Below are positions 2,710-20,109 of a DNA stretch of 20,109 bases, in pieces (position 1 is the stretch's first letter; each line of letters starts with the position of its first letter). The position numbers and the translations under genes are program-made. The notes beneath the pieces are model-generated. The model made no database searches, was not told where the DNA came from, and saw nothing but the letters and a program-made list of their open reading frames with translations. Location of the stretch: positions 1 through 20,109 of the forward strand of contig JAJRVA010000030.1 of the NCBI GenBank assembly GCA_024277485.1, in the 5' to 3' direction. The DNA comes from Deltaproteobacteria bacterium (GTDB lineage Bacteria > Desulfobacterota > Desulfobulbia > Desulfobulbales > Desulfobulbaceae).

Positions 2710-2721
2710 CTCTTTGGTGTG

Positions 2722-2746
2722 ATGAAATACGGTGATTGTATTTCAT
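2722..2746. repeat. perfect 9-bp inverted repeat, 7-base loop
   Basis: ATGAAATAC (2722-2730), seven bases, then GTATTTCAT (2738-2746). It lies in the 66-base gap between the permease stop and the ACP start. On the minus strand it could be an operator or an mRNA hairpin just ahead of the ACP ribosome-binding region. On the plus strand it is followed by a T-rich tract (to 2759) and could weakly terminate transcripts coming from the B12-radical SAM remnant. The arms are AT-rich, so a strong terminator is unlikely. Confidence 0.45.
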
Positions 2747-2775
2747 TAAATCGTTTTTTCCGGTACGGCATGCGG

Positions 2776-6306: not shown

Positions 6307-6316
6307 GCGGAATTTC

Positions 6317-7509: not shown

Positions 7510-8333
7510 TGTTCACTCCTTTTTGTCTGTTGTAGCACTGTCATTACAGGGTGCTGGATGATCTCTGCCAATGATACAACGTTATGCTTCTTTTGCAACG
7601 TCCCAAAAAACCGGTCAAGTTCTTTTTGCCAGTATTCTGACAGGTGTCTTTGAAAGGGAGGCAGGTCGTGCAGCATGATGATGTCGCCCGGCTGCAGGCG
7701 CTTGAGAATTTTCCGGGCCAGGTTGTCGATTTTCCTGTTGCCGCGGTCCAGGGCGCGGCAACTGTAGTTTACCGCAATGAGGCCTTCCCGGGCAAGCACT
7801 TTGCCCAGGTGCGGATTGGTTATGCCGGCCGGCGGCCGAAAAACACGGGGCTGGATGTCGAAATTTTTGAAGATTTCCTGGGCGGCATGAATGTCCGCCT
7901 GCAGGGTCCTGGCTGATCGCAGCATAAGCAGGGGGTCATGCCGCAGGGAGTGGTTGCCGATCGCATGTCCCTGCGCCAGGATTTCCCTGATCAGCTCCGG
8001 ATATTTTTCCGCTTTTTCCCCCACCGCGAAAAAGGTGGCCTGCAGCCCGTGGCGAGCCAGAAGATCAAGGAGAATGGGCGTTGATTCCGGTGAAGGGCTG
8101 TCGTCAAAGGTGAGGGCAACGCTGTCTGTTCCTGTCCGGCCGCGGCAGATAATGGGCAGAAAAAAGCTGCAGCAGGGAAGAAAAGGGGCTGCCAGGCAGA
8201 ACAGCAGGAAAAGGAGTAACACAGTTGCGGCCAGGACGGGTTTGACAAAGAAAAGCACCAGTGCAAGGAGCAGGGCCGCAGCGCCGGTCTGTACGGCCGG
8301 GGAAAAACCTTTGCCGGAAGATTTATTTCGCAC
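7506..8333 (-). CDS. polysaccharide deacetylase family protein (NodB homology), membrane-anchored
   Basis: A carbohydrate esterase 4-type deacetylase of about 275 residues. Two hydrophobic N-terminal segments (about 17-60) anchor it, with the NodB domain after residue 70. Motifs: TFDDSP with metal and catalytic aspartates 77/78; HSLRH (His128, His132) as metal ligands; RPPAG (motif 3); and MLHDLPP (motif 5). It removes acetyl groups from N-acetylated sugars, consistent with the GT25 glycosyltransferase two genes upstream. Start choice: the GTG at 8333 has GGAG six bases upstream and gives an 11-base overlap with the exporter gene. The in-frame GTG at 8345 is an alternative without a clear Shine-Dalgarno. 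Coupled to the DUF4410 gene by ATGA. Confidence 0.9.
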   Translation of the reverse strand: MRNKSSGKGFSPAVQTGAAALLLALVLFFVKPVLAATVLLLFLLFCLAAPFLPCCSFFLPIICRGRTGTDSVALTFDDSPSPESTPILLDLLARHGLQATFFAVGEKAEKYPELIREILAQGHAIGNHSLRHDPLLMLRSARTLQADIHAAQEIFKNFDIQPRVFRPPAGITNPHLGKVLAREGLIAVNYSCRALDRGNRKIDNLARKILKRLQPGDIIMLHDLPPFQRHLSEYWQKELDRFFGTLQKKHNVVSLAEIIQHPVMTVLQQTKRSEQ

Positions 8334-11300
8334 CGGCTGCTCCACTGTTGACCCGGCCCACCATCCAGACCAGTTCCGGGTTGGTCCTGGTTACCTCGTT
8401 GAGCATGATTGAAAAGCCCGCTTCCGTCAAGAGGGCAGCCATCGCATCAGCCGGGCGGTACCAGGCCTTGCCGCCGGATATTTTCACCCGCCAATCCTCA
8501 AGCATCCAGGACCAGGATGGTTTGTTCGCAGGTGTGATCACGAATCGTGCCACCAGGATCCCGCCCGGCGCAAGGGCCTGGAAACTGCCCGCAAGAGCCG
8601 ACCGAACCGTGTCATCATCCAGGTAGTGCAGCATGTCAAGCAGCAGGACCACGTCGGCCGGTTGGGGCACAGCAGGTATCTCCGGGGCCAGGCCGCGGGT
8701 AATAGTGCCCCGGCTGCCGGTGGCAATGGATGCCACCCGGACCCTCTCCGGATCCGGATCAATGCCGAATACCCGCGCGTCTGGAAAATATTCAAGACAC
8801 CAGCAGGCCGGAACCCCGTAGCCGCAGCCGATATCGATAACAGTGCGGGTGTTTTCCGCATGGGCCAGTATCTGCGGCAGGTCGTCGAACATGGGATCAA
8901 ACCGCAGCTTGAAGCGGGCAAACATCCTGGGATACGTTTCCAGAAGCCGGAAACGGTCCCGGACCCGCCGGGGTATATCCCGGGCATCTTTTTTCCCCCT
9001 GCTTTTTCTGTCCCGGTCCGCAAAGTACCGGTTGAGCAGTGGGGGCAGCAGGAGGAAAGTGCCGAGCAGGGAATACCCGATCCCGGTGAATGACGTAACG
9101 CCTATGCTTCGCAGCATGGAGTGATCGGCAAAGCAGAGTGCTCCGAAGCCGATCAGGGTGGACGCCCCGGCCAGGAACACGCTGCTGCGGACCAGGGTAT
9201 AGGAGGGGTGCGAGATATCACGGTATCGCTGGTGCGCCCGCACACAGAAGATGGAATAGTCGATGCCCATGCCGAGTATGATAATGGACAGCATGAGGGC
9301 GGGAATATCCAGGGGGTGCCCGATGATCTTCAGGGTGCCCAGGGTGCAGATATAGGCGAAGACAACAGGGAGCAGGGTCAGAAGGGTGAGGGGCAGGCTG
9401 AGGTAGAAAAAAAACAGCATCAGGACCAGGCCGCCGCTGATTATCATCAGCATCCCGGTGAAGGTCGAAAACAGGATATCAGCTAATCGCTCTGAGAAGT
9501 AGGCCCCGTCAAAGATTTTTCCATCCCTGGTGTAGCGGCGGAAAAAATCTTCTGCCTGGTAGTTTTTACCGGGAACAAGGGTGGTGAACTGGACCAGTCC
9601 CGGGCTGTCTGTCCTGGTGGAAATACCCAGCAGGGGATAGTATTTTTCCTGAAGAGTGGCGGGGGTGGCTGGGAATTGAGGGTCAAGCAGGGCCAAAAAA
9701 GGAGCAAAGGCATCCGGCGCAAAGTGAAATTCCGCTCCGGCAGCAAGCAGGGCCTCCCGTACCTCCTGCCTGCGGCTGTCGTTCCAGAAATCCTGCCAGG
9801 CAGCCATGTTTGCCGCACTTTTTTCCGGGCCTGGAAAGATCATGGACGGCAAAAAACTCTTTTGCAGGATATTTTTTTCCAGGTCCTGTTCGGTCCTGGC
9901 AAGAATACGATCATTTTTTCGCTGCAGTTCGGCAACGGAATCACTACTGCTCATCAGAAATATCCGGTTGCCGATTTCGCCCCAGACCCCGGTAAACAGC
10001 GCGTCTGCCTGCAGGGTTTTTTCGCTGACCGTATTCATGCTGCTTAGACTGACGTGAAACGTCGGGCTGGCGAAAAAGAGGAGGAATACTGCCAGCAGAC
10101 CGGCACCGATGGCGCCGTATCGGCCGGTGCAGTACAGCCTGTTGACAAGGCCGCGCAGCGGCAGGGATCGATTGCTGCCGGGAGCCATTGTCGGGAAGAT
10201 ACGCGGTAAAACAGCGTGGACAAAGAGAAAGGAAAACAGAATGCCCAGAGCGGTGAACTGCCCGAGCTCGGTGAAGACGGGAAAACCGCTGAGTCCCAAT
10301 ATCAGAAAGGCGCCGATGGTCGTGATGACCGCCATGATACCGATGGCCCGGACCTCGCGAGATGCTTCCCTGCCCCTTGTCTCCCGGGGCCGGTCCAGAA
10401 AGAGCATATAGGTAATGCCGTGGTCCACGGTGATGGATATAATGGCCCCGCCAAAGCCCAGCACCATGATTGAAATGGTGGGGTGGAACAGGGAATAGAC
10501 AAAAAGCGCAGCAGATGTTCCGGCAAGGGCGGGCACGAGAGACAGGAGACCCAGCAGGGGCCGTGGAAAGGAAAAGAGCAGCAGCAGGCCGATACCAAAG
10601 GTTGCCAGGATAAGCGCCAACTGCACGTCACGCCGGATGATGCGCTCGTTATCAAGGGCAGCCCGATAGGCACCCACCGGCGTCAGGGTTACCTGCAGTC
10701 CCTGGCCGGTATATTTTTCAGCAAGCCGGGAGGCGGCCTGGTCAAGCAGTTCGGAAATCCTGCGGGCGGATGCGGTGTCCGTGCCGCCGGCCAGGGGCCG
10801 TGCCGTAACGAGAAGGTGTCGCCCGTCCGCAGAGACCAGGCTGCCTTTGTGCCACCTGGCATTCATGGCCGGTGCCAGCGGGGCCATTTTGGCCAGGACA
10901 ATATCTTTCAACCCCAGGGGATCACGTGCAAGGAATTGCGCCTGGCCGACCCCTTCCAGGCTGCTTAACTGCGCATACATACTCTGGACACGCTCCCTGA
11001 CCGCATCTTTTTCCAGGCGCGGCACAATGGACTTGAGATCATCCCCGGAGAGCAGAAGGGGAAGGTTCTCTGCCGCGTAGAGGGCGAGTTCCGGGATCAG
11101 GTCCCCAATGGCACCGGTCCCGACCCGGGCGAACAGGCCGCTTTCTTCCATCTTTTGTTCGAGATAGGCGCCGCATTCCACCAGCACATCAGGATTATCG
11201 CTGTTGAGCATGATATCCACCGCAACCTGGTCATGGATGGGATGCTGTTCGAAGATATCCAGCGCGTCGGCGATGACCTTTTCACCAGTCGGCAGCGAAC

Positions 11301-11397
11301 GGACCACATCCGTCTCAATATCGAGGCGCACCAGGCCCAGGGCCGTGCAGGCCATGACCAGGAGCGCAACAATACATAAGAGGCGATAGTTGATCAT
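8323..11397 (-). CDS. MMPL/RND-family exporter fused to a SAM-dependent methyltransferase
   Basis: A 1024-residue fusion. Residues 1-790 form an RND/MMPL exporter: a first membrane helix (5-22), an extracytoplasmic loop, a membrane bundle (about 258-400) with the charged VDHG motif (Asp325), a second large loop, and a second bundle (about 655-790) with GMGIDY (Asp713). After a basic linker (DRDRKSRGKK) comes a class I methyltransferase with motif I DIGCGYG (855-861), an acidic FGIDPD after strand 2, and LLLDMLHYLDD. Exporters of this family move lipids and pigments, for example in aryl-polyene loci. The methyltransferase would act on the cytoplasmic side. An open frame reaches 11526, but the ATG at 11397 gives the ATGA overlap with the GT25 gene. 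No internal stop or frameshift; both halves look intact. Confidence 0.92.
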   Translation of the reverse strand: MINYRLLCIVALLVMACTALGLVRLDIETDVVRSLPTGEKVIADALDIFEQHPIHDQVAVDIMLNSDNPDVLVECGAYLEQKMEESGLFARVGTGAIGDLIPELALYAAENLPLLLSGDDLKSIVPRLEKDAVRERVQSMYAQLSSLEGVGQAQFLARDPLGLKDIVLAKMAPLAPAMNARWHKGSLVSADGRHLLVTARPLAGGTDTASARRISELLDQAASRLAEKYTGQGLQVTLTPVGAYRAALDNERIIRRDVQLALILATFGIGLLLLFSFPRPLLGLLSLVPALAGTSAALFVYSLFHPTISIMVLGFGGAIISITVDHGITYMLFLDRPRETRGREASREVRAIGIMAVITTIGAFLILGLSGFPVFTELGQFTALGILFSFLFVHAVLPRIFPTMAPGSNRSLPLRGLVNRLYCTGRYGAIGAGLLAVFLLFFASPTFHVSLSSMNTVSEKTLQADALFTGVWGEIGNRIFLMSSSDSVAELQRKNDRILARTEQDLEKNILQKSFLPSMIFPGPEKSAANMAAWQDFWNDSRRQEVREALLAAGAEFHFAPDAFAPFLALLDPQFPATPATLQEKYYPLLGISTRTDSPGLVQFTTLVPGKNYQAEDFFRRYTRDGKIFDGAYFSERLADILFSTFTGMLMIISGGLVLMLFFFYLSLPLTLLTLLPVVFAYICTLGTLKIIGHPLDIPALMLSIIILGMGIDYSIFCVRAHQRYRDISHPSYTLVRSSVFLAGASTLIGFGALCFADHSMLRSIGVTSFTGIGYSLLGTFLLLPPLLNRYFADRDRKSRGKKDARDIPRRVRDRFRLLETYPRMFARFKLRFDPMFDDLPQILAHAENTRTVIDIGCGYGVPACWCLEYFPDARVFGIDPDPERVRVASIATGSRGTITRGLAPEIPAVPQPADVVLLLDMLHYLDDDTVRSALAGSFQALAPGGILVARFVITPANKPSWSWMLEDWRVKISGGKAWYRPADAMAALLTEAGFSIMLNEVTRTNPELVWMVGRVNSGAAGAK

Positions 11398-12134
11398 GTT
11401 TTCTGCCACAGGTACAGGAGCAGACCACCCAGTATGAAAAGGAGGGCCAGGTGAATAACAGAAAGCAATCCCTTGTGATTCTGATAAAATTCGTTTGCCC
11501 TCTGGATAAACGGCAGACCTCCGCACAGTCTCCGCACCAGGTCAATGGCCGCGGTCTGGTTATCGGTCCTTGAGCGACCCTGAAAGGCGCACATGGGATA
11601 GACGGCATAAAATTCCGTGTTATGGCGCCGCAACAGGGTGTCAAAGGGAATGTTGTTCCAGTTTTCCCGGGCGATCCGTTCCGCAAAAGGCCGCTTAAGG
11701 GCATACGCATGGGACAGGCAGCGGTATCTGATTTTCACCAGCGCTTTCTGGTCAGTACTGCGGCTGCCGCCTGTAATGCAGCCTAAAAAAAACGCGTTCC
11801 AGGGAAAGGGATTGCCCAGGCTGGAGCAGGCTTTGCGGAGAACCTCAGCATTAAAATTTTGAAAAAAAACATCATCCTCAAAGATCAGGATATTATCGGC
11901 CCCTTCGGCAAGTCCTTTTTTCAGGCAACGCATGTGGGACTGAAAGATACCCTTTTCCCGGTTTTCCGGATGCCTGGTAACAATAACAAACTCGACCCGG
12001 TTCTGCAGCCCGACACCGGTGAACTGTTTTTTCACCTGCTCTCTGCGGTCCCTGCGCTGGTCAATGGAGATGCAGTAGATCCTGTCAAAGAAGGCCCAGC
12101 AGTCAGGGATGATGTTATTCTCAGGAGGGTTCAC
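11394..12134 (-). CDS. glycosyltransferase family 25 (LPS glycosyltransferase type), membrane-anchored
   Basis: A 246-residue GT25-like glycosyltransferase. The N-terminal IYCISIDQRRDRR (19-31), QSHMRCLKKGL (65-75) and the metal-binding ILIFEDDV (82-89, acidic triad 86-88) match the family that adds sugars to lipooligosaccharide. A single C-terminal hydrophobic helix (about 222-242) would tether it to the inner membrane. It starts with GTG at 12134, preceded by AGGA about eight bases upstream. First gene of the transfer/export block, coupled by ATGA to the MMPL-methyltransferase fusion. Likely glycosylates the lipid product or its acceptor (inference). Confidence 0.88.
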   Translation of the reverse strand: MNPPENNIIPDCWAFFDRIYCISIDQRRDRREQVKKQFTGVGLQNRVEFVIVTRHPENREKGIFQSHMRCLKKGLAEGADNILIFEDDVFFQNFNAEVLRKACSSLGNPFPWNAFFLGCITGGSRSTDQKALVKIRYRCLSHAYALKRPFAERIARENWNNIPFDTLLRRHNTEFYAVYPMCAFQGRSRTDNQTAAIDLVRRLCGGLPFIQRANEFYQNHKGLLSVIHLALLFILGGLLLYLWQKT

Positions 12135-12327: not shown

Positions 12328-12690
12328 ATGATCAGGCAGGCTATTATAAAAATAGGGAAAACCGGGTTTGTCCGTTCCGCTATCGAGGAACAGGCCGACC
12401 TGTCGGCCTTCAGGGAAAAGCCCACCCCCCTGGTACTGGCCGGTGTTTTCACCATCGCGTTCAGTTTTGTCATCGGCTGGCCGGCAGTCGCCGGGCTCGG
12501 CATCCTGGCGGTCAAGCTGCATAATCCCTGGATTGCCGCCGTGGGAGGCCCGCTGATGTACGGCTTGTCCCATCTTGTCTTCCTGCTTGGCATGTATCTT
12601 TCCGGTGCGCTCTACTCCATGATTTTCCTCCGCTGGCTGACCAGGGTCTCCATGGAGAAACTTCTCGTCTGGGCGGGGGAGGACAATTGA
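12328..12690 (+). CDS. small membrane protein of unknown function
   Basis: The only intact-looking plus-strand gene in the window. A 120-residue protein with a short cytoplasmic-looking N-terminus (MIRQAIIKIGKTGFVRS) and two to four hydrophobic segments: about residues 34-62 (LVLAGVFTIAFSFVIGW) and about 70-106 (MYGLSHLVFLLGMYLSG). I do not recognise the family. The frame opens at a GTG at 12271, but that start would sit almost on the inferred transcription start, so the ATG at 12328 is preferred. The last 79 bases (12612-12690) overlap the end of the convergent dehydratase gene. Protein-like composition and its own promoter argue for a real gene; its link to the cluster is positional only. 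Confidence 0.65.
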   Translation: MIRQAIIKIGKTGFVRSAIEEQADLSAFREKPTPLVLAGVFTIAFSFVIGWPAVAGLGILAVKLHNPWIAAVGGPLMYGLSHLVFLLGMYLSGALYSMIFLRWLTRVSMEKLLVWAGEDN

Positions 12691-13493
12691 TAATTCTTAA
12701 TTTTCCTCATCCGGATGCCGGTTACGGTTTCGCAGGCCTGCCCCTGGCGGTCAAAGATTCCCAGGTCAAAGACAAGTTCGTCAGGGCCAAGGGAAACCAG
12801 TTTAACCTGTGTGATGTGGCACTCCCCGGGCCGGGTGGGCTGGTGGATAACCCTTCGCCTGAACCCGACCGGGAAAGGGACAAAGTCCACATGCTGCTGG
12901 CCAAGAACACAGGCTGCGTGCAGGGCGCCATCCAGCGGAAAGGGGGAACCGATTTCCTCCTGTACGCTGTAAACCGCGGGTAGAGACGGTGCCTGCAGTT
13001 TGCCCCAGGCCCCCTGTTCGGACACAAAGAGCGTCTCCTGCAGGGTATGGTAGGCCGGGCCGAAGGGCACCTTTTCCCGGTAGATCGCGTCTGCCTGAAT
13101 TTCAGTGCGCACCTTATCCGGGGGCGCGGGGCTGATGACCTCCTCATCGGCAAAGTGCCCTGAGGCTGGGAATACAACTTCAGCGTACTCAAAAATCCTG
13201 GTCATGGTTTTCAGCTGAACCCGGCTGCAAAGCCTGGCATGGACGGCATTAGCCTCATCCCTGTCGCAGTCGACCAGGACTTCCATGGACGTGTCTTCCG
13301 GAGGTATCTCGAGAAACCTGACAAAGCGGGCATTCTCCATGACCCTGATACTTCTTGCCGGGTAGGATTTTTGCACCTCTGCCGCAAGCAGAAGCATGGT
13401 TTCAACTGCAGGCAGCACTGCCTTGCCGCCAAAACAGTGGTCCCTGAACCAGGGCTGGACGGAAATTGCAACTGTAGCGCGATCACCCATCAT
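12612..13493 (-). CDS. PKS-type dehydratase (double-hotdog, PS-DH)
   Basis: A 293-residue stand-alone dehydratase of the polyketide-synthase type. The N-terminal hotdog carries the HxxxGxxxxP motif with catalytic His19, Gly23 and Pro28. The C-terminal hotdog carries the catalytic acid Asp188 in PLDGALHAA and the PFPVGFRR loop (206-213); VPFGPAYHTLQ (142-152) matches the YGPxF motif. It removes water from beta-hydroxyacyl-ACP to give enoyl-ACP. The final ~26 residues after KIKNYQ overlap the plus-strand membrane-protein gene and look like a read-through tail beyond the fold. ATGA-coupled to the thioesterase (13490-13493). Last gene of the biosynthesis block. Together with the FabZ/FabA-like enzyme it gives the block two different dehydratases. 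Confidence 0.88.
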   Translation of the reverse strand: MMGDRATVAISVQPWFRDHCFGGKAVLPAVETMLLLAAEVQKSYPARSIRVMENARFVRFLEIPPEDTSMEVLVDCDRDEANAVHARLCSRVQLKTMTRIFEYAEVVFPASGHFADEEVISPAPPDKVRTEIQADAIYREKVPFGPAYHTLQETLFVSEQGAWGKLQAPSLPAVYSVQEEIGSPFPLDGALHAACVLGQQHVDFVPFPVGFRRRVIHQPTRPGECHITQVKLVSLGPDELVFDLGIFDRQGQACETVTGIRMRKIKNYQLSSPAQTRSFSMETLVSQRRKIME

Positions 13494-13969
13494 GAATCGG
13501 GAAATTCCTGCCAGAGCCGGATGGTTTTTTTGTCTATCTCCACCGGGATCCCCTTCCTGTTGACCGCGCAGTGCCGGGTAAAGCCCGTACAGACAATCTC
13601 ACCGTTGTCGGCCCGGGTAATGAGGTAATCAAACTGCAGCTTGACCAGCTCAATATTGGCCGGGCGGGTATGGATGTACATCAGATCATCGTAGTAGAGG
13701 GGCGTGTAAAAGTTGAGTTCTGTCTTGATAATGGGGTAGATGAAGCCGCTTTCCTCGATTTTTTTATAGGGATAGGAGGCTTCCCGCATCAGCGACGCGC
13801 GGCCGAATTCAAAATATTTCAGGTAATTGGCATGGTAGACAACCTGGGAGCGGTCCGTGTCCACGTACAGGGTACGCATCTCGCAGCGATGCCAGACCAG
13901 GCCGGTGCCGCGGTCCCCGACATAGGGAGAATCCGCACGAAGCTCGGGGAGAAACGGTTTGGGGCGCAT
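13490..13969 (-). CDS. acyl-ACP/CoA thioesterase, YbgC/FadM (4HBT) hotdog family
   Basis: A 159-residue hotdog protein with the 4-hydroxybenzoyl-CoA thioesterase signature YVDTDRSQVVYHANYL (35-50). Asp39 aligns with the catalytic Asp17 of the Pseudomonas enzyme, and YFEFGR follows. It hydrolyses acyl thioesters, here probably releasing or editing chains on ACP. The first ~25 residues extend beyond the usual start of the family. Eight bases separate it from the ketosynthase stop, and it is ATGA-coupled to the dehydratase. In this locus a thioesterase alongside a BtrH-like acyltransferase suggests either free-acid release or proofreading of stalled chains. Confidence 0.9.
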   Translation of the reverse strand: MRPKPFLPELRADSPYVGDRGTGLVWHRCEMRTLYVDTDRSQVVYHANYLKYFEFGRASLMREASYPYKKIEESGFIYPIIKTELNFYTPLYYDDLMYIHTRPANIELVKLQFDYLITRADNGEIVCTGFTRHCAVNRKGIPVEIDKKTIRLWQEFPDS

Positions 13970-13977
13970 ATTTTTAT

Positions 13978-15243
13978 TTAGACTCCACGCAAGACAAGGC
14001 AGCAGTTGGTGCCGCCGAAGCCGAATGAATTGGACAGGACAAACTCATGCACATGTTTGCGGATCGTGTCGGGAACAACATCCAGGTCGTCAAAGGCAGG
14101 ATCCGGGATATGGTTGACAGTGGGCAGGACAATCCCCTGCTGCATGGCCTCGATGGCAAGGGCAGCCTCGATGGCTGCGGAGGCTCCCAGGCTGTGCCCC
14201 ACCTGGGACTTGTTGGCCGAGACGGGAATTTTTTGCAGCCTGTCTCCGAAGACGGTACGCAGGCACTCCACCTCGGTGCCGTCGCCCCTGGGGGTCGAGG
14301 TGCCGTGGGCGTTGATCGCGCCGATGGCGGAAGGAGGGATTTCGGCGTCATCAATGGCATCCAGTATGGCCCGGGTAACGGTCTCCGGGTTTGGCCGGGT
14401 AAAATGGTGCGCATCCGAGTTCCATCCTATGCCTGCTATCTCGGCTCTTTTTTTCAGGCCATGGGCCTGGACCGCCTCTTCCGCGGCAAGAACCACCACG
14501 CCTGCCCCTTCCGCCAGGACAAACCCCTTTCGGTCAAGGCTGAACGGCCTGGACGCCTGGGTCGGGTCGTCTGCGGCACGGTCTTTGGACCCCACCTTGA
14601 TAGTGGCAAGCATGTTGGCAAAACCCTGGATGATTTCCGGAACCAGGCAGGTCTCGACCCCTCCGGCCAGGACAAAATCACAGTCCCCGTCCCGGATCAT
14701 CCTGGCCCCGATGCCGATGGCATGATTTCCCGAGGCACAGGCCCCCTGGGGGGAAAAGATCGGTCCGGTGAAGCCAAGCAGCATGCCCGCTTTCCCCGCG
14801 GGCAGGTTGGCGCAGACATTGGGCAGGAGATAGGGACTGACCTTGAACGGTCCCCGGTTGACATAGTTGTCCATGGCGATGCGGAAGGAGTCGGTTCCGT
14901 TTAAGGCCGAACCGATCAGGCACCCGGTTCGCGGGCCGGTGTCCGCGGTCATCTCCAGGCCGGCATGGGCAAGGGCCCTGCGGCAGACCTCCATGGTGAG
15001 AAAGACATAGGCCGCATCCCAGAGCGATTCTTCTTTCCGGTCAACATAGGGAAGGGATCCCGGATCCCAGTCCGGAATTTCACCAACCACGTTGGACCGG
15101 CTCGTGGTCGCGCACCGGGTGACTCTGCGAAATCCGGCCCGGCCGTCTACCGCCCCCTGCCATGTTGCGGGAAAGGTATTGCCGAGAGCTGTGGCCGTAT
15201 CATACCCGATCACGAAGACTTTTCTGTTCTGCGGTGGTTTCAT
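13978..15243 (-). CDS. beta-ketoacyl-ACP synthase, FabF type (KS A)
   Basis: A 421-residue thiolase-fold condensing enzyme with a complete catalytic triad: Cys169 (QGACASG), His313 (NAHGTST) and His350 (KSQVGHSLG). It performs decarboxylative condensation of an acyl chain with malonyl-ACP. The C-terminal NSFGFGGTN (405-413) is typical of FabF/KAS II. The frame opens at 15327 inside the neighbouring gene; the ATG at 15243 gives a normal FabF N-terminus (MKPPQNRKVFVIGYD) 34 bases after the upstream stop. It follows the second ketosynthase directly. Both carry the active Cys, so this is not a KS/chain-length-factor pair in which one member has lost it. Confidence 0.93.
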   Translation of the reverse strand: MKPPQNRKVFVIGYDTATALGNTFPATWQGAVDGRAGFRRVTRCATTSRSNVVGEIPDWDPGSLPYVDRKEESLWDAAYVFLTMEVCRRALAHAGLEMTADTGPRTGCLIGSALNGTDSFRIAMDNYVNRGPFKVSPYLLPNVCANLPAGKAGMLLGFTGPIFSPQGACASGNHAIGIGARMIRDGDCDFVLAGGVETCLVPEIIQGFANMLATIKVGSKDRAADDPTQASRPFSLDRKGFVLAEGAGVVVLAAEEAVQAHGLKKRAEIAGIGWNSDAHHFTRPNPETVTRAILDAIDDAEIPPSAIGAINAHGTSTPRGDGTEVECLRTVFGDRLQKIPVSANKSQVGHSLGASAAIEAALAIEAMQQGIVLPTVNHIPDPAFDDLDVVPDTIRKHVHEFVLSNSFGFGGTNCCLVLRGV

Positions 15244-15277
15244 GGATACACTGGTACCTTCCGGCCGGTTCCCGAGT

Positions 15278-16579
15278 TCAGCCCGTCTTTCTGAAAACAG
15301 CGCAGGCGTTGCAGCCGCCGAAACCAAAGGAGTTTTTCAGCACAAACTCCTGGCTGACAGCCCGTTTTCCTTCGGCCACACAATCAATATCGATCTCCGG
15401 ATCAGGGGCGTAATTGATGGTCGGCGGCAGAATGTTTTCCCGCATGCCCCGGAGGGCAAAGATGGTCTCAATAACGCTTGAGGCTCCCATGGCATGGCCG
15501 ATAAGCGATTTGTTGGCAGACACCGGCGGCAGGGTAGCGCCGAAAACAGCCTTCAGGGCGTCATATTCCACCTTGTCCCCGACCCTGGTCGAGGCCGCGT
15601 GACCGTTGACGGCGTCAATATCAGGGGGGTTGAGTCCCGCACTCGCGACCGCATCCTGTATGCACTGTTTCACGGTGGAAAAATAGGGAGCGACAAAGTG
15701 ATGCGCATCAGATGTCATCCCCCAGCCCGCAAGTTCGGTAGCATAACGCAGGCCGTGTGTTTTGGCAAATTCCCTGGTGGTCAGAATAACCGCTCCAGCG
15801 CCCTCGGCAATGACAAAGCCCCGCCTGTTGGCTGAAAAGGGGCGGCTGGCCTTTTCCGGTGGCTCATCTTCGTGTCCTTCCCTGGGGTTATAGGCCCCGT
15901 TCATGGTATGGAAGCCTGCCACGATCGGTTCAACCAGGGCAAAGTCAACAGCACCGGCAATAACCACATCCGCCATGTCCTGGGCCAGGAACATGGCGCC
16001 GATGAGCATGGAGGTCAGGCCGGTGGCGCAGGCGGTGATGGTGGTTGTAATCGGCCCCCGTGCCCCGGTCTGGATAGCAATTTTTCCGCCCACCATGTTG
16101 ATGCAGGAGTTGGGGTTCGCGTAAGGTGGCGGCAGCCTGTTTGCAGTCTGCATCCTCCTGTCTGCCGCCAGGACCGCATCCAGGCCGCCGATGGCGGAAC
16201 TGTAGGTGACCGCCGTCCGGGACGCGATGTCCCCGGAGATATCAATGCGACTCCGTTCCAGAGCCCGCTCAACGGAGAGCATGGAATATTTGAAGACCGG
16301 TGAACTCCAGGCTGCCTGGTGACGGGGCGTCAGAAAAGGGTAGTCCAGGTGATCTATATCCGGGACCTGGCCGGCAATGGAAACAGGGAAATCGCGGGGA
16401 AGCGGAAAGCGGCTGAGTCTGCCGATGCCGCTTTTTCCGGCGAGTGCGCGCTGCCACTGGGTCTCCAGATCGCTGCCCAGCGGGGAGATGGCATCATAGC
16501 CGACAATGACCGCGTCTTTCCCCCCCATCGCACTGTTACCGAACGCAGCCACAGGGTTGCAGGGGCTGCGGTTTTCCAT
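15278..16579 (-). CDS. beta-ketoacyl-ACP synthase, FabF type (KS B)
   Basis: A 433-residue FabF-like condensing enzyme: Cys184 (ITACATGLTS), His327 and His362 (KSLIGHAMGAS), and the C-terminal NSFGFGGCN. The first His lies in NGHAAST and not the usual NAHGTST, so two residues of a well-conserved loop differ. This may alter substrate or extender handling. Start uncertain: the ATG at 16579 is 25 bases after the radical SAM stop; the ATG at 16528 gives a more typical FabF N-terminus (MGGKDAVIVGYD); and the frame also opens at 16636 inside the neighbouring gene. None has a strong Shine-Dalgarno. Works with KS A and the ACP at 18686-18952 in chain elongation (inference). Confidence 0.92.
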   Translation of the reverse strand: MENRSPCNPVAAFGNSAMGGKDAVIVGYDAISPLGSDLETQWQRALAGKSGIGRLSRFPLPRDFPVSIAGQVPDIDHLDYPFLTPRHQAAWSSPVFKYSMLSVERALERSRIDISGDIASRTAVTYSSAIGGLDAVLAADRRMQTANRLPPPYANPNSCINMVGGKIAIQTGARGPITTTITACATGLTSMLIGAMFLAQDMADVVIAGAVDFALVEPIVAGFHTMNGAYNPREGHEDEPPEKASRPFSANRRGFVIAEGAGAVILTTREFAKTHGLRYATELAGWGMTSDAHHFVAPYFSTVKQCIQDAVASAGLNPPDIDAVNGHAASTRVGDKVEYDALKAVFGATLPPVSANKSLIGHAMGASSVIETIFALRGMRENILPPTINYAPDPEIDIDCVAEGKRAVSQEFVLKNSFGFGGCNACAVFRKTG

Positions 16580-16604
16580 GCCTGTTCGTGTCCATGGCCG
16601 CTGT

Positions 16605-17603
16605 TTACCAGGGAATGAACTGGTAGAGCTTGGCAAACATCTCGTACACCTCGATCCAGTTCTGGAGGTCTTTGGTGGTCTTGATATGGGCCCGCTTGTT
16701 GACCATGACCCAGCTCATATGGGCGGCGCCGTCCTTGCAGGTGGAGCAGTCTCGGGTTTCCGAGGTGCAGCAGCGGTGCATGGTCTCAAGGTCCGAGGCC
16801 CAGCGGATAAAGTTGGTCAGGCGCCTGGGCCGGGGGTCTCTTTTGTCAATCGGCTCGGTTACCGACGGACACTCCATCCATCCGAACTCCCGGTCCAGCA
16901 TCTTTCCGGTGGTGATGATTTTGTGGTAATATTTTGACGAGATAACCGTGTCCGGATACCGGTCCAGCATATCATCCATCTCCGCCCGGATATCGACAAG
17001 CTCATCCGGCTGCCAGGAAAAGCCGTCAACCCCCTCGTCATTGGACAAAAGCTGCATGTGGACCTTGAGGCCCACGTCCCGTATTTTACGGATGATTTTT
17101 TCAGTCTTGCCAAGCTGTTTCGGGGTGATGGTGTACAGGTAGTAGGCGTGGGGATCTCCCTCGTAGTTGGCGCTGGAGATTTTGAAGGTATCCTTGCCCC
17201 GCAGGATGGTTTCGTCCTCCGCGTCTCCCCACAGGGAAAGGCCGACCATCATGTCGGGGAAACGGTCACGGGGAACCTTGATCAGGCCATTGGTGGCGCA
17301 GAAGGTGGGCAACCGTTTGTAAAAGGCCTCGATCCGGTCCAGGCAGAGCGTCGGTTCACCACCGATGAGGATGGCCAGGTTGACGCCGCGGGCCATCTCC
17401 TTTTCGACAAAGGCATGCCATCTGGCCACGTCTTTTTCCTCGGATGCCCTTTCATGCTCACCGGAAGAAAAGAAAAAGCATCCCTTGCAGCGCAGGTTAC
17501 AGCGGTCGGTCACGTCATAGATCGAACTGCGGATATTGAGCCTGGAAATTTTCTTGTAACGCTCGTACCAGTGGTCATCAAGCAGGGAACTGACGGTTAT
17601 CAT
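16605..17603 (-). CDS. radical SAM protein (paralog A)
   Basis: A 332-residue radical SAM enzyme. CNLRCKGC (35-42; Cys35, 39, 42) binds the [4Fe-4S] cluster that cleaves S-adenosylmethionine. LIGGEPTL (79-86) is the SAM-binding GGE motif. The C-terminal part has a second cysteine group, Cys278-Cys279 and Cys286-x-x-Cys289, also present in the next paralog, which could hold an auxiliary cluster. The role in this block could be C-C bond formation, desaturation or rearrangement of an ACP-bound chain. Pairs of radical SAM enzymes next to FabF and ACP genes are a feature of candidate ladderane loci. ATGA-coupled to paralog B (17600-17603), so the two are made together. Confidence 0.92.
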   Translation of the reverse strand: MITVSSLLDDHWYERYKKISRLNIRSSIYDVTDRCNLRCKGCFFFSSGEHERASEEKDVARWHAFVEKEMARGVNLAILIGGEPTLCLDRIEAFYKRLPTFCATNGLIKVPRDRFPDMMVGLSLWGDAEDETILRGKDTFKISSANYEGDPHAYYLYTITPKQLGKTEKIIRKIRDVGLKVHMQLLSNDEGVDGFSWQPDELVDIRAEMDDMLDRYPDTVISSKYYHKIITTGKMLDREFGWMECPSVTEPIDKRDPRPRRLTNFIRWASDLETMHRCCTSETRDCSTCKDGAAHMSWVMVNKRAHIKTTKDLQNWIEVYEMFAKLYQFIPW

Positions 17604-18679
17604 GATTCTACGTCCGCGTGTTGATTGTTTGGCGGTGGTGCAACAAATGTATCACAGAGATTGGTTCCTTTTTCATATCCCCTGACCCAGACCGCGAGAT
17701 AGGTGTCCACGTAATCAAGCCAGGCGGAAAACGTTGCCGGATCAACGGCGTGGCGGTACATCCTGGCCGTGACCACGGCGCTGCCGGCAGCGTAATGTCG
17801 GCAGTCATCACAGTCCGTGTCCGGCACGCAGCAGGCAGCCTCGCGGTCCCACTCGAGATCGGTGCGGTACTGGCGGAAGGAACGGCCAAGACCGATATCC
17901 GTGGACGGGTTCATGCGTGGATAGGAGCAGGAAAAAAGGTCATGCAGCCCAAGCCTGTCGGTGTGGGCAACGATGTTGTAGGGAGAAAAGAGAACCGTTT
18001 CCGGGAACTCGGCCAGCAGTTCAGCCATGACCTGCCTGGTCCTGGCCAGGGTTTCCGGGGTATGGCGGAGATGCCCGGTATAGCCGACCGGGGCGGAAAA
18101 CATGTTAAAGGTAATCTGCATGTTGCCGTCAGCCAGGAGCGCGGTTACCTCCCGCGCCTCGTCGATGTTCACCGGAGAAAAGGTGTAGACGAAAACAGCC
18201 CGGGGATCATCCTGGTAGTTTTTCATCTGGCGGACAAGCATATCCTGCGCATTTCTGACGGCAAGGCTGGTCCGGTCATTCCCCCAGGCCGAGATGTGTA
18301 TCCGGTAGTCAATTTCGCGCGGGATCGGTTTCAGGCCATTGGTGGCAATGGCGCCCCGGGGGATCACGCGGAAGCAGATTTCGCATAACTCGGGCACCAG
18401 GGAGGGTTCGGCCCCGGCAAGGACAACAAAGGTGATGCCGCGTTCTTTCTCCGCCTCGAGAAGCCGCTGCCAGGCAGACGGGTCTCTGTTTTCTTCAACA
18501 GACTGTTTTGCGCCGGTATAGTAATAGCAGCCTTCGCACCGGATATTGCACCGGTTGGTCATGTCATAGGTGGATTCACGCAGGAAAAAATATTTGCGGA
18601 CCTTTTCCCACCGTTTTCTGATGGCGGGATCGGCTATTATCTCTGAAAATGTGTATTCCTGCTGTTTCGGGGTCTGCAC
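17600..18679 (-). CDS. radical SAM protein (paralog B)
   Basis: A 359-residue radical SAM enzyme related to its neighbour. The cluster motif is CNIRCEGC (44-51; Cys44, 48, 51), followed by LAGAEPSL in place of the usual GGE, so the first glycine pair is altered to GA. A C-terminal CC (283-284) and CxxC (290-293) mirror paralog A. Shared order, motif spacing and C-terminal cysteines point to a tandem duplication followed by divergence. The start is GTG at 18679, six bases after the ACP stop, without a clear Shine-Dalgarno. The protein may form a heterodimer with A or act on a successive step (inference). Substrate unknown. Confidence 0.92.
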   Translation of the reverse strand: MQTPKQQEYTFSEIIADPAIRKRWEKVRKYFFLRESTYDMTNRCNIRCEGCYYYTGAKQSVEENRDPSAWQRLLEAEKERGITFVVLAGAEPSLVPELCEICFRVIPRGAIATNGLKPIPREIDYRIHISAWGNDRTSLAVRNAQDMLVRQMKNYQDDPRAVFVYTFSPVNIDEAREVTALLADGNMQITFNMFSAPVGYTGHLRHTPETLARTRQVMAELLAEFPETVLFSPYNIVAHTDRLGLHDLFSCSYPRMNPSTDIGLGRSFRQYRTDLEWDREAACCVPDTDCDDCRHYAAGSAVVTARMYRHAVDPATFSAWLDYVDTYLAVWVRGYEKGTNLCDTFVAPPPNNQHADVES

Positions 18680-18685
18680 GGGACT

Positions 18686-18952
18686 TTAGTCGCTGCTTTT
18701 CAGCTTGTTGTCAATGTACTTGGCAATGATGCGCACAGTCGTCAGTTTGGGATAGTCATCCTCGTCAATCCGTATGCCGTACTCATCACGGAGAACCAGG
18801 GCAATGGTTGCCAGGTCCATGGAGTCAATCCCCACCTCATCGACCAGGTCGAGGTCGGCATCAAAGGTTTCCGGCGTTACATCTTCAAGCTTGAGCTCAT
18901 CAATAATAATTTCCGCAATTCGGGTGATAGTCTGTCTGCTGTCGTTGTTCAT
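18686..18952 (-). CDS. acyl carrier protein (biosynthesis-block ACP)
   Basis: An 88-residue type II ACP with the phosphopantetheine site Ser44 in VGIDSMDLATI (40-50) and a strongly acidic surface (DADLDLVDEV, RIDEDDYP). It carries the growing chain for the two ketosynthases and the dehydratases. ATGA-coupled to the FabZ/FabA-like gene upstream (18949-18952), and six bases before the radical SAM B start. That position suggests the radical SAM enzymes act on ACP-bound intermediates. Clearly different in sequence from the ACP at 2428-2709. Confidence 0.95.
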   Translation of the reverse strand: MNNDSRQTITRIAEIIIDELKLEDVTPETFDADLDLVDEVGIDSMDLATIALVLRDEYGIRIDEDDYPKLTTVRIIAKYIDNKLKSSD

Positions 18953-19323
18953 AACTTCACTATTTTTTTTATACCTGTTGTTTTTGTTTCAAAACGCATT
19001 ATTCCGGAACAGACATCTTCATCTCTGCTCGTTATCCGGAAGGCATAGTGGCCTTTCTTCCTGTCGCAAGCAGCGTGAATGTCAAGGGGTTCCCCCGGCC
19101 TGACAATTTTCCTGAATTTAACTCTGCTCACCCCTGTCATGATTACCATATTTTTCCGTGCCGCGGCAATACAATCTGCAACCATATCCAGCTGGGCGAT
19201 TCCCGGCAGAATCGGGTTGCCGGGAAAGTGACCCGAGAACCAGGGCGAATCAGGCTCTGTTGTCACCCGGGCGCTCACCTCATCCTTGTCCGTCTTCGTT
19301 AATGCAACAAGCGTGTACCACAC
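18949..19323 (-). CDS. 3-hydroxyacyl-ACP dehydratase, FabZ/FabA-like hotdog protein
   Basis: A 124-residue single-hotdog dehydratase with GHFPGNPILPG (31-41); His32 is the catalytic His. At +14 from it, where FabZ has Glu68 and FabA has Asp84, this protein has Asp46, as in the bifunctional dehydratase/isomerase FabA. It removes water from beta-hydroxyacyl-ACP; an isomerase activity is possible but not shown. The start is GTG at 19323, with AGGA only two bases away, so initiation may be weak or the true start slightly downstream. First gene of the biosynthesis operon, about 70 bases after a good promoter (19401-19429). Confidence 0.88.
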   Translation of the reverse strand: MWYTLVALTKTDKDEVSARVTTEPDSPWFSGHFPGNPILPGIAQLDMVADCIAAARKNMVIMTGVSRVKFRKIVRPGEPLDIHAACDRKKGHYAFRITSRDEDVCSGIMRFETKTTGIKKIVKL

Positions 19324-19400
19324 GTTCCTGTGTCAGGTTAAGGTCAAACAGAGATGCTCATGGCAAGTTTACCCCCGTATACAGAACAAAAAGACGATTG

Positions 19401-19429
19401 TTTATACCATTAGGATCAGAAATACACAA
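19401..19429 (-). promoter_or_regulatory. promoter of the biosynthesis operon
   Basis: On the minus strand: -35 TTGTGT (19424-19429), a 17-base spacer, and -10 TATAAA (19401-19406) with an extended TGG just before it. Transcription would start near 19394, leaving a leader of about 70 bases before the GTG at 19323. That leader contains a five-codon mini-ORF (ATGAGCATCTCTGTTTGA). It separates the oxidoreductase gene from the operon that runs to 12612. Confidence 0.6.
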
Positions 19430-19521
19430 CATGGTCTCTTACAAAATATCGGGGCGGAAAAGAACCAGGCCCCCGGGTGGTGTGAAAAATCATGATTTCG
19501 CCTGACATCAAGGATGTTTTT

Positions 19522-20109
19522 TTACTCCAGCAGAATTCTTTTTCTGAATTCTTCCGGGCCCAGGATAAGCTTTACTGTGCTGAAAGAACCGACAATCGTG
19601 CCGATAATTCCAGGGGCCGTTACATTCTGCCCGGCAAGATAGAGCCCCCTGACAGCGGTCCTGTTCAGCAGGGCGGTGGCCAGCATGGTGCTGGATGATC
19701 GCAATACACCGTAAGCGCTCCCGCCGGGACTGTTGACCCAGTCCCGCATTGTCAGCGGTGTCCAGGTATCGATAATTTTTGCCCCGCGCAGTGTCCCGAA
19801 CAGTTTTTCCGCCTCCCGGACAAGTCCCATGGCATACTGTTTTTTTGCTTCCAGGTAGTCCCTGCCGCGCCGGCCGGTTCGTGTTTTCTCCCAGGGCGCC
19901 CACAGTTCGTCCCTGCCGGAGGTGAGGATCGACAGGAGGCTGCAGTTTTTTCTTTCGCTTTGCCGGATTTGGTAGAACCTGAGATCCGGCACGTTCCCAT
20001 TCCCGTCCGTATCAACTTTAAAAATATTGTATGGAATTTCCGGGTGCGCAGCAGCATCCAGCCTGACATGGACCGAGAAAATCCCGTGCGTATCCTCCAG
20101 GTTGCTGAT
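19522..20109 (-). CDS. CrtI/RetSat-like FAD-dependent oxidoreductase (C-terminal part)
   Basis: The last 195 residues of a larger flavoprotein whose 5' end lies beyond the right edge; the frame is open to base 20109. The C-terminal FAD-binding segment GLYLAGQNVTAPGI and the preceding TPLTMRDWVNSPGGSAYGV are characteristic of phytoene desaturases and RetSat-type retinol saturases, which are normally about 500 residues. Such enzymes desaturate, isomerise or saturate polyene or fatty chains with FAD. This gene lies on the same strand, just upstream of the promoter of the FabZ-like gene, and is a recurring member of candidate ladderane loci. The substrate, and whether it desaturates or saturates, cannot be told from the sequence. 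Confidence 0.88.
   Translation of the reverse strand: MSNLEDTHGIFSVHVRLDAAAHPEIPYNIFKVDTDGNGNVPDLRFYQIRQSERKNCSLLSILTSGRDELWAPWEKTRTGRRGRDYLEAKKQYAMGLVREAEKLFGTLRGAKIIDTWTPLTMRDWVNSPGGSAYGVLRSSSTMLATALLNRTAVRGLYLAGQNVTAPGIIGTIVGSFSTVKLILGPEEFRKRILLE

What the first reader, a model, noticed from the sequence alone, without database searches (positions are those of the whole stretch)
12612..20109. Ladderane-like or novel polyene lipid biosynthesis block
Seen: CrtI/RetSat-like oxidoreductase, FabZ/FabA-like dehydratase, ACP, two radical SAM paralogs, two FabF ketosynthases, thioesterase and PS-DH dehydratase on one strand in a nearly continuous run. Known: candidate ladderane loci of anammox bacteria combine FabF, FabZ, ACP, radical SAM and CrtI-like genes; such loci also occur in sulfate reducers, and no function has been proven for them. 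Inference: an unusual cyclised or polyunsaturated acyl chain is made here, in a host that need not be an anammox bacterium.
Basis: partly seen in the sequence, partly recalled or inferred. Interest (0 to 1): 0.8.

Follow-up and report, generated by a model that had tools for sequence, protein, structure and literature searches.

The report
Polyene lipid cluster with radical-SAM module
A sulfate-reducer-type DNA fragment carries about half of a gene cluster that looks like an aryl-polyene pigment pathway with a set of oxygen-sensitive radical enzymes added, and it probably makes an unusual membrane or envelope lipid that has not been identified.

Summary
In detail: CrtI-like end, dehydratase, ACP, two radical SAM (rSAM) enzymes, two FabF-like ketosynthases, thioesterase and PS-DH lie in order on the minus strand. 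The locus continues to about 2.4 kb with MMPL-methyltransferase, polysaccharide deacetylase, PagL, BtrH, ABC transporter and a second ACP. The core is syntenic in Desulfobulbales, other sulfate reducers and two purple sulfur bacteria.

In relatives the missing upstream half is an aryl-polyene (APE) type II PKS set: 14 of 18 E. coli APE-region proteins have island homologues, and its ketosynthases branch with ApeO and ApeR. A cobalamin rSAM there scores at the cut-off of NCBI's 'ladder' lipid family. In one order, rSAM1 and the ketosynthase/chain-length-factor fusion occur in exactly the same 47 of 146 genomes; phylum-wide the link is looser (14 of 21).

Best reading: an APE-type polyene synthase plus an anaerobic rSAM tailoring module making an unusual lipid acyl chain. 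A ladderane product is neither shown nor excluded; a related sulfate reducer was reported to lack ladderanes (Rattray 2009). Direct anammox orthology could not be tested.

The parts
19522..20109 (-). CrtI/CrtD/RetSat-like flavin oxidoreductase, C-terminal 195 aa, cut by the window end
   Evidence: NCBIfam TIGR02733 E 1.3e-4; full-length homologue L001:7459-8949 is PF01593; next to the core in 3 of 59 loci
18949..19323 (-). ApeI/FabA-like hot-dog dehydratase
   Evidence: PF07977, PF22818 ApeI-like; PDB 3esi, 6qsr best; E. coli ApeI E 2e-8
18686..18952 (-). ACP1, dedicated acyl carrier protein
   Evidence: PF00550; present upstream of rSAM1 in 75 of 75 loci
17600..18679 (-). rSAM1, radical SAM enzyme, CX3CX2C plus invariant C-terminal Cys residues
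   Evidence: PF04055; invariant Cys; 2053 relatives; family in 47 of 146 genomes of the order
16605..17603 (-). rSAM2, paralogue of rSAM1 (27% identity), strongly conserved
   Evidence: PF04055 below its cut-off, 27.6 bits; adjacent in 69 of 71 loci
15278..16528 (-). KS1, FabF-like ketosynthase with intact Cys-His-Lys-His (ORF opens at 16636)
   Evidence: PF00109/PF02801; TIGR03150 335.8 bits, below its cut-off 493.75; tree
13978..15243 (-). KS2, FabF-like ketosynthase with intact Cys-His-Lys-His (ORF opens at 15327)
13490..13969 (-). YbgC/FadM-type thioesterase, ApeK-like
   Evidence: TIGR00051 81 bits, over cut-off; E. coli ApeK E 3e-17
12612..13493 (-). PS-DH, double hot-dog polyketide-type dehydratase
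   Evidence: PF14765 E 9e-11; PDB 7zmf E 4e-4
12328..12690 (+). Conserved small membrane protein on the opposite strand, overlapping the 3' end of PS-DH by 79 bp
   Evidence: tblastn hits in relatives; 34 of 46 loci; PF11158 only below cut-off
11394..12134 (-). Glycosyltransferase family 25
   Evidence: PF01755; 30 of 44 loci
8323..11397 (-). MMPL-family exporter fused to a SAM methyltransferase (ORF opens at 11526)
   Evidence: PF03176 and PF13489; E. coli ApeN E 1e-16; 31 of 43 loci
7506..8345 (-). Polysaccharide deacetylase
   Evidence: PF01522 E 4e-29; 24 of 41 loci
6919..7509 (-). DUF4410 protein
   Evidence: PF14366; also in Allochromatium after the deacetylase
6317..6922 (-). PagL-like lipid A deacylase family protein
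   Evidence: PF09411; with the BtrH module in 3 of 12 fetched regions
5869..6306 (-). Unassigned protein of the BtrH module
   Evidence: no Pfam; homologues with BtrH
4865..5872 (-). BtrH/DUF4872-type protein, possible acyl-ACP-dependent acyltransferase (function recalled)
   Evidence: PF14399, PF16169
4089..4928 (-). ABC transporter ATPase
   Evidence: PF00005
2776..4092 (-). ABC-2 type transporter membrane subunit
   Evidence: PF12698
2428..2709 (-). ACP2, ApeE-like carrier protein
   Evidence: PF00550; E. coli ApeE E 2e-14

Best explanation
The window holds about half of a lipid biosynthetic island of an anaerobe close to Desulfobulbales. In relatives the other half is an aryl-polyene-type type II polyketide synthase: a ketosynthase fused to a chain length factor, an ApeR-like ketosynthase, ketoreductase, dehydratases, AMP ligase and carrier proteins; no dedicated enoyl reductase was recognised among the proteins scanned. 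Proposed mechanism: this part builds an ACP-bound conjugated polyene. The window's module (ACP1, rSAM1, rSAM2, KS1, KS2, PS-DH, with a cobalamin rSAM upstream in relatives) then desaturates, methylates or cyclises the chain by radical chemistry under anoxia and extends it. The thioesterase, a fatty-acid-kinase-like protein, acyltransferases and glycosyltransferases move it to a glycerol or sugar head group. MMPL, LolA-like and ABC proteins place it in the envelope. Shown: gene content, order, homology, intact and lost active sites, co-occurrence. Inferred: every chemical step, the product, and that the window's own genome has the upstream half.
For: 1. E. coli CFT073 APE region against the island (window, Desulfopila and Allochromatium proteins together; small database): 14 of 18 proteins have a homologue, among them ApeR 8e-95, ApeO 5e-63, ApeQ 4e-61, ApeJ 2e-40, ApeH 2e-28, ApeK 2e-20, ApeN 1e-16. 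2. Tree: E. coli ApeO with the fused ketosynthases 99/98, ApeR with the island ApeR-like 100/99. 3. The C-terminal half of the fusion has lost Cys, His and His (7 of 7 sequences) and several named relatives are called chain length factor. 4. rSAM1 and this chain length factor are found in exactly the same 47 of 146 genomes of the order, also on different contigs or 322 kb apart (G140), and in the same 2 of 146 genomes of the Allochromatium family. 5. The purple sulfur bacteria branch among Desulfobulbales in the rSAM1 tree (midpoint root), so the island probably moved as one unit. 6. Distant rSAM1 homologues (24-32% identity) on plasmids sit beside or near carrier-protein, dehydratase or NRPS genes in the three looked at. 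7. Five other genomes without the fusion have a compact form of the island; in 4 of the 5 a further protein follows PS-DH, and the three of these scanned are PlsY-type glycerol-3-phosphate acyltransferases, which points to a glycerolipid.
Against: The upstream half is cut off in this window, so it is inferred from relatives. CrtI adjoins the core in only 3 of 59 loci. In the phylum sample the co-occurrence is looser: 14 of 21 rSAM1 genomes have the chain length factor, and one genome has it without rSAM1; five of the seven exceptions are compact islands without it in the stretches fetched, so an APE-type synthase may not always be needed. KS1 and KS2 are FabF-like, which also fits a plain fatty-acid chain. 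The island's FabG best matches ApeQ, but its top Pfam model, a general SDR one, bears the title enoyl reductase, so reduction of some double bonds is not excluded. 4 of 18 APE-region proteins have no match, and no aromatic ammonia lyase is found in 41 of 47 rSAM1 genomes. Kinship is not corrected for in the co-occurrence. No structure could be predicted.
Confidence: 0.6

Rival explanations
1. A true ladderane-like pathway: the radical SAM enzymes cyclise a polyene acyl-ACP to concatenated cyclobutanes or another strained carbocycle that enters membrane phospholipids.
For: Kind of cluster as in Rattray 2009; cobalamin rSAM at the rSAM_ladder_B12 cut-off; compact islands carry a PlsY-type G3P acyltransferase; cobalamin rSAM enzymes are proposed for ladderanes (PMC13142503 passages).
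Against: Ladderanes were looked for in Desulfotalea psychrophila, which has a cluster syntenic with Kuenenia, and not found. The 'ladder' family is most typical (562-612 bits) in 23 of 146 genomes, 21 of which lack rSAM1, and in the two such clusters read gene by gene (L128, L134) it sits among APE-type genes. The double-Phe motif reported for AmxACP3 is absent from ACP1 and not seen in the aligned part of ACP2.
Confidence: 0.15
2. An anaerobic polyunsaturated fatty acid pathway that feeds OleABCD to make C31 polyunsaturated hydrocarbons, in the line of Rattray's proposal for D. psychrophila.
For: C31:8 and C31:9 found in D. psychrophila; PfaA over cut-off in 0 of 9 carriers (two of them, G008 and G007, have a large PKS-like protein at 321 and 231 bits, far under the cut-off of 1010); a run of OleB-, OleC- and OleD-like genes in the Desulfopila genome (OleC, the other two by position and recall).
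Against: OleC family over cut-off in 38 of 47 rSAM1 genomes but also in 58 of 99 others; 7 of the 47 show none over cut-off and 2 only pieces (Fisher p 0.009, kinship ignored). Export and head-group genes are unnecessary for a hydrocarbon.
Confidence: 0.12
3. An ordinary aryl-polyene pigment cluster in which the radical SAM genes are accessory or bystanders.
For: Homology to 14 of 18 APE-region proteins. In G075 an aromatic ammonia lyase lies within a few kb of PS-DH in the same run of genes, and in G069 one lies about 29 kb from rSAM1.
Against: Aromatic ammonia lyase absent from 41 of 47 carriers; rSAM1/rSAM2/ACP1/KS1/KS2 is the most constant part and persists without the APE part nearby in compact islands.
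Confidence: 0.1

Closest known systems
Aryl polyene (APE) cluster of E. coli CFT073 (ApeB-ApeR)
   Same: KS, KS-CLF, KR, two dehydratases, AMP ligase, ACPs, thioesterase, LolA, MMPL, GT2/acyltransferases have island homologues
   Different: KS and CLF fused; MMPL fused to a methyltransferase; added rSAM1, rSAM2, third SPASM rSAM, two cobalamin rSAMs, KS1, KS2, ACP1, PS-DH, fatty-acid-kinase-like protein; no ammonia lyase in 41 of 47 carriers
Ladderane candidate clusters of Kuenenia and the syntenic Desulfotalea cluster (Rattray 2009)
   Same: FabF paralogues, FabZ/ACP, rSAM genes, CrtI-like gene, acyl-CoA ligase, MMPL-like membrane protein, polysaccharide deacetylase-like protein, methyltransferase as described in the papers
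   Different: No anammox or D. psychrophila sequence was available to test orthology; no function has been shown for either cluster in what I read
NCBIfam TIGR04072 rSAM_ladder_B12
   Same: Upstream cobalamin rSAM of relatives scores 361-403 bits against a cut-off of 360 in 11 chosen proteins
   Different: A second, higher-scoring group (562-612 bits, 23 genomes) lies mostly in genomes that lack rSAM1 (21 of 23); the gene itself is outside this window
antiSMASH 'ladderane' clusters in non-anammox MAGs (Cariaco Basin, PMC9902471)
   Same: Reported in Desulfobacterota and eight other groups including Planctomycetota, function unknown outside anammox genera (passages)
   Different: No gene-level analysis of this island in the passages seen

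Membership tests
Aryl polyene-type cluster | Ketosynthase with chain length factor | tested here: met
   Met in relatives only: fusion, CLF half without Cys/His/His in 7 of 7, tree with ApeO; outside this window
Aryl polyene-type cluster | ApeR KS, KR, ApeI/ApeP dehydratases, ACPs, AMP ligase | tested here: met
   in relatives; in the window itself only the ApeI-like dehydratase and the ACPs
Aryl polyene-type cluster | Thioesterase, LolA, MMPL export set | tested here: met
   thioesterase and MMPL are in the window, LolA in relatives
Aryl polyene-type cluster | Aromatic starter by ammonia lyase (in some APE clusters, recalled) | tested here: not met
   PF00221 in 6 of 47 rSAM1 genomes; the E. 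coli APE region used here has none annotated either, so this does not settle membership; I call the island APE-type, not an aryl polyene cluster
Aryl polyene-type cluster | Aryl polyene product | not testable with these tools
   needs chemistry
Ladderane candidate cluster | rSAM, CrtI-like and FabF genes in one FAS-type cluster | tested here: met
   CrtI adjacency is rare in relatives (3 of 59)
Ladderane candidate cluster | Cobalamin rSAM of the 'ladder' family | tested here: inconclusive
   in relatives, 361-403 bits at a cut-off of 360; in the order 33 of 47 rSAM1 genomes over cut-off with this type and 4 just under it; not in the window
Ladderane candidate cluster | Double-Phe motif of AmxACP3 | tested here: not met
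   absent in ACP1 and in the aligned part of ACP2; other island ACPs not checked; motif from a PMC9821293 passage
Ladderane candidate cluster | Orthology with Kuenenia proteins | not testable with these tools
   no anammox sequence reached
Ladderane candidate cluster | Ladderane lipids in the host | not testable with these tools
   host unknown; D. psychrophila negative in Rattray 2009
Pfa-type PUFA synthase | PfaA-type multidomain synthase | tested here: not met
   0 of 9 carriers over cut-off
OleABCD hydrocarbon pathway | Tight co-occurrence of ole genes (OleC family as marker) | tested here: not met
   OleC in 38 of 47 carriers and 58 of 99 non-carriers

The most novel reading that the evidence does not exclude
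Ladderane-type chemistry is an elaboration of aryl-polyene biosynthesis: a type II polyene PKS (KS-CLF, no enoyl reduction) hands an ACP-bound conjugated polyene to radical SAM enzymes that cyclise it, and this machinery is spread well beyond anammox bacteria, in sulfate reducers and, by horizontal transfer, purple sulfur bacteria. The 'non-canonical FabF' proteins of anammox would then be chain length factors. If so, the product here is an undescribed cyclised polyene membrane lipid, and cultured carriers give access to a pathway that cannot be studied genetically in anammox bacteria.
Probability: 0.2. Interest if true: 0.85.

Novelty: new variant of a known kind. Interest (0 to 1): 0.55.

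Why it matters
How ladderanes are made is an old open question, and anammox bacteria are not in pure culture. This island ties the same kinds of radical enzymes to a better known pathway type (aryl polyenes), predicts an ACP-bound conjugated polyene as the substrate, and names cultured carriers of the core (Desulfofustis glycolicus DSM 9705, Desulfogranum japonicum and mediterraneum, Allochromatium palmeri DSM 15591, Thiorhodococcus mannitoliphagus DSM 18266) in which gene removal and lipid analysis could be tried. It also warns that a 'ladder' family label in sulfate-reducer genomes can mark an APE-type cluster, as in the clusters read here.

Tried and rejected
Whole genome of the window: none is held. 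Finding Desulfotalea psychrophila, the only species with lipid data, by its plasmid accessions (recalled) failed; the one genome of its size (recalled) without a match in the family sample was a fragmented draft, so its cluster could not be compared. PfaA as source of polyenes: rejected for 9 carriers. Ole linkage: weak. PDB comparison of rSAM1: only distant radical SAM enzymes, best SkfB E 4e-6. PDB comparison of BtrH: nothing. The first-stage name FabZ for the dehydratase is replaced by ApeI-like. Aromatic starter: not general.

Rows dropped: three genomes with only weak rSAM1 matches (G116, G120, G132); two genomes with weak chain-length-factor matches (G398 at 2e-22, G407 at 1e-15); four rows and four chain-length-factor rows before the KS tree, and one fetched region (L109) that gave no candidate; loci with too little flank before the counts; two genomes with split OleC pieces were counted as not over cut-off. 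Of the regions fetched only L128, L129, L132, L134 and L136 were read gene by gene. The loci examined are the best 80 of 308 confirmed. Recalled, not from a call: that NF006754/PRK09274 is OleC and the accession itself, that 7qv0/8ayb/8ayc are the anammox FabZ, that 6qsr is ApeI, the Ape letters given to the E. coli proteins, the functions of BtrH, FakA/FakB and PlsY.


Full report
What is in the window. Corrections: the dehydratase is nearer to ApeI than to FabZ (Pfam ApeI-like 34.3 bits, over its cut-off of 28.5; PDB best hits 3esi and 6qsr). KS1 and KS2 are FabF-like but well below the FabF equivalog cut-off (336 and 366 against 494 bits), and both keep Cys-His-Lys-His. rSAM1 and rSAM2 are paralogues at 27% identity. 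The CrtI-like gene is cut by the window end. Downstream the strand continues with a family 25 glycosyltransferase, an MMPL exporter fused to a methyltransferase, a polysaccharide deacetylase, DUF4410, PagL, an unassigned protein, BtrH/DUF4872, an ABC transporter pair and a second ACP.

Relatives. rSAM1 has 2053 database relatives at E 1e-3; the best 120 are listed, and the 119 besides the window's own are 77-87% identical; the four with an organism name are Desulfobulbaceae or Deltaproteobacteria. One scan of GTDB contigs confirmed 308 places, of which the best 80 were kept and examined. Counting only loci with enough flank, the core is nearly invariant: dehydratase 69 of 70, ACP1 75 of 75, rSAM2 69 of 71, KS1 58 of 59, KS2 51 of 53, thioesterase 49 of 53, PS-DH 44 of 46; the next genes are frequent: glycosyltransferase 30 of 44, MMPL-methyltransferase 31 of 43, deacetylase 24 of 41. 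Upstream, a cobalamin rSAM stands in 39 of 61, a ketosynthase fusion in 36 of 51, FabG in 29 of 44, LolA in 23 of 41, a second cobalamin rSAM in 23 of 40, but CrtI only in 3 of 59. The BtrH/ABC/ACP2/PagL module recurs beside the core in 3 of 12 further regions, in part in L004, and, without its PagL, a few kb from a different APE-type cluster that holds a PagL of its own (L128/L129).

The missing half. In Desulfopila and Allochromatium the island was followed beyond the window's edge (Pfam of nine Allochromatium proteins, of L001). It adds an ApeP-like dehydratase, FabG, LolA, an AMP ligase, GT2 and acyltransferases, a Dak2-DegV fusion (fatty-acid-kinase-like), an ApeR-like ketosynthase with its ACP, a SPASM rSAM, two cobalamin rSAMs, and a ketosynthase of about 720 aa whose second half lacks Cys, His and His in 7 of 7 sequences and whose named relatives are called chain length factor or 3-oxoacyl-ACP synthase. 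No dedicated enoyl reductase was recognised; the FabG best matches ApeQ, though its top Pfam model, a general SDR one, is titled enoyl reductase. Compared with the aryl-polyene region of E. coli CFT073, 14 of 18 proteins there have an island homologue at E 1e-3 or better in this small database (the four without are DUF3261, ApeG, ApeB and a 129 aa protein). In a maximum-likelihood tree of 36 ketosynthase rows (of 44 collected) E. coli ApeO joins the fused ketosynthases (99/98), ApeR joins the island ApeR-like (100/99), and KS1 and KS2 are sister groups (100/99) placed near FabF (91/90, not a strong node); ApeO is a long branch.

Co-occurrence. In 146 genomes of the order of Desulfopila, rSAM1 (E below 1e-180) is found in 47 (three further genomes at about 1e-4 were not counted). 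The chain-length-factor half is found in 47 too, and these are the same 47 (Fisher p 2e-39 without correction for kinship). The two genes are not always neighbours: 322 kb apart in G140, on different contigs in at least nine drafts. A cobalamin rSAM of the upstream type (over 680 bits) is in 38 genomes, 37 of them rSAM1 carriers. In the Allochromatium family rSAM1 and the chain length factor occur in the same 2 of 146 genomes, and the Chromatiaceae rSAM1 branches among Desulfobulbales (midpoint root), so the island was probably transferred whole. In 297 genomes of the phylum the link is weaker: rSAM1 in 21, the chain length factor at E below 1e-60 in 15, both in 14, one genome with the factor alone, two weak matches not counted. 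Of the seven exceptions, G260 has an APE-like set with a diverged ketosynthase nearby, G295 lies on a short contig, and five (G243, G279, G340, G434, G454) show a compact island in the stretches fetched: the membrane protein, ACP, cobalamin rSAM, deacetylase, dehydratase, ACP1, rSAM1, rSAM2, KS1, KS2, and (all but L122, which was fetched only to KS2) thioesterase and PS-DH; a FabA-like dehydratase precedes it in L117 and L118. In 4 of these 5 a further protein follows PS-DH; the three scanned are PlsY-type glycerol-3-phosphate acyltransferases (PF02660, E 8e-36 to 1e-37). This is the best hint that the acyl chain ends in a glycerolipid.

The ladderane link. Rattray et al. 2009 (PMC2649909; parts 1-4 of 7 read) reported FAS clusters with rSAM and phytoene-desaturase-like genes in Kuenenia with synteny in Desulfotalea psychrophila, no ladderanes but C31:8 and C31:9 hydrocarbons there, and FabF paralogues without the catalytic Cys and His residues. 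I read those paralogues as chain length factors; Kuste3348 shares Pro300 with the island factor, but this is a comparison with a printed table, not an alignment. The upstream cobalamin rSAM of relatives reaches the NCBIfam family rSAM_ladder_B12 (11 of 11 chosen proteins, 361-403 bits, cut-off 360); the second, divergent cobalamin rSAM does not (42 bits). In the order 59 of 146 genomes have a member over cut-off: 36 of the lower-scoring type (33 of them rSAM1 carriers; four more carriers lie just under the cut-off) and 23 of a higher-scoring type (562-612 bits), 21 of which lack rSAM1. Two of the latter clusters, L128 and L134, were read gene by gene and are APE-type clusters with two cobalamin rSAMs, and L134 holds an ammonia lyase gene. 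In G075, one of the two carriers of both rSAM1 and the higher-scoring type, the ammonia lyase and that cobalamin rSAM follow the window-type core within a few kb (L132). So in the clusters read here the 'ladder' label marks APE-type clusters, and the rSAM1/rSAM2/KS1/KS2/ACP1/PS-DH module is what sets the window's island apart.

Other tests. PfaA over cut-off in 0 of 9 carriers; G008 and G007 have large PKS-like proteins at 321 and 231 bits against a cut-off of 1010. OleC in 38 of 47 carriers and 58 of 99 others. Aromatic ammonia lyase in 6 of 47 carriers and 2 of 99 others. The MMPL-attached methyltransferase also occurs in a cable bacterium record (Electrothrix AR4). Distant homologues of rSAM1 on plasmids (15 of 72,556 records, 24-32% identity) lie, in the three looked at, next to an ACP and an NRPS gene, a MaoC dehydratase, or in a region with ACP and adenylation genes, which fits action on carrier-bound substrates.

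Literature. Clusters labelled ladderane are already known from Desulfobacterota and other phyla with unknown function (PMC9902471 passages). I saw no paper linking them to aryl-polyene biosynthesis in the listings; several of these lists are capped (30 of 44, 25 of 42, 15 of 108 and 15 of 612 shown) and the library lacks most subscription journals. Passages only were seen of PMC4790861, PMC13142503, PMC6463001, PMC9821293 and PMC12758564.

Verdict. The chemistry is unproven. I rate it a new variant of a known kind, interest 0.55, with a bold reading (radical cyclisation of an APE-type polyene) at 0.2.

Noticed in passing
window 12328-12690 (+): A conserved small membrane-protein gene lies on the opposite strand inside the operon and overlaps the end of PS-DH by 79 bp; 34 of 46 loci keep it. 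In compact islands a relative is co-oriented with the operon and stands at its front.
   Followed up: partly
window 2428-6922: PagL, an unassigned protein, BtrH/DUF4872, an ABC pair and ACP2 form a module that recurs beside some of these islands (3 of 12 regions) and, in similar form, beside another APE-type cluster.
   Followed up: partly
L128, L134 (G013, G112): A second class of APE-type cluster in the order with two cobalamin rSAMs, separate KS and CLF, no rSAM1/rSAM2 module and in G112 an ammonia lyase; its cobalamin rSAM type scores 562-612 bits to rSAM_ladder_B12 in 23 of 146 genomes.
   Followed up: partly
L084 (G001 C22): An OleC-family gene flanked by OleB- and OleD-like genes in Desulfopila, with no obvious OleA-like gene in the 18 kb fetched (by eye; flanking genes not scanned); OleC family over cut-off in 96 of 146 genomes of the order.
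   Followed up: no
L091, L092 (Alteromonas and Burkholderia plasmids): Distant rSAM1 homologues next to a gene annotated as phenylacetic acid catabolic protein and a MaoC dehydratase or PaaI thioesterase; a small uncharacterised cassette.
   Followed up: no
window 3-1659 (-): M48 peptidase, cpYpsA-type SLOG protein and a rubredoxin-like protein at the left end, apparently unrelated to the island.
   Followed up: no
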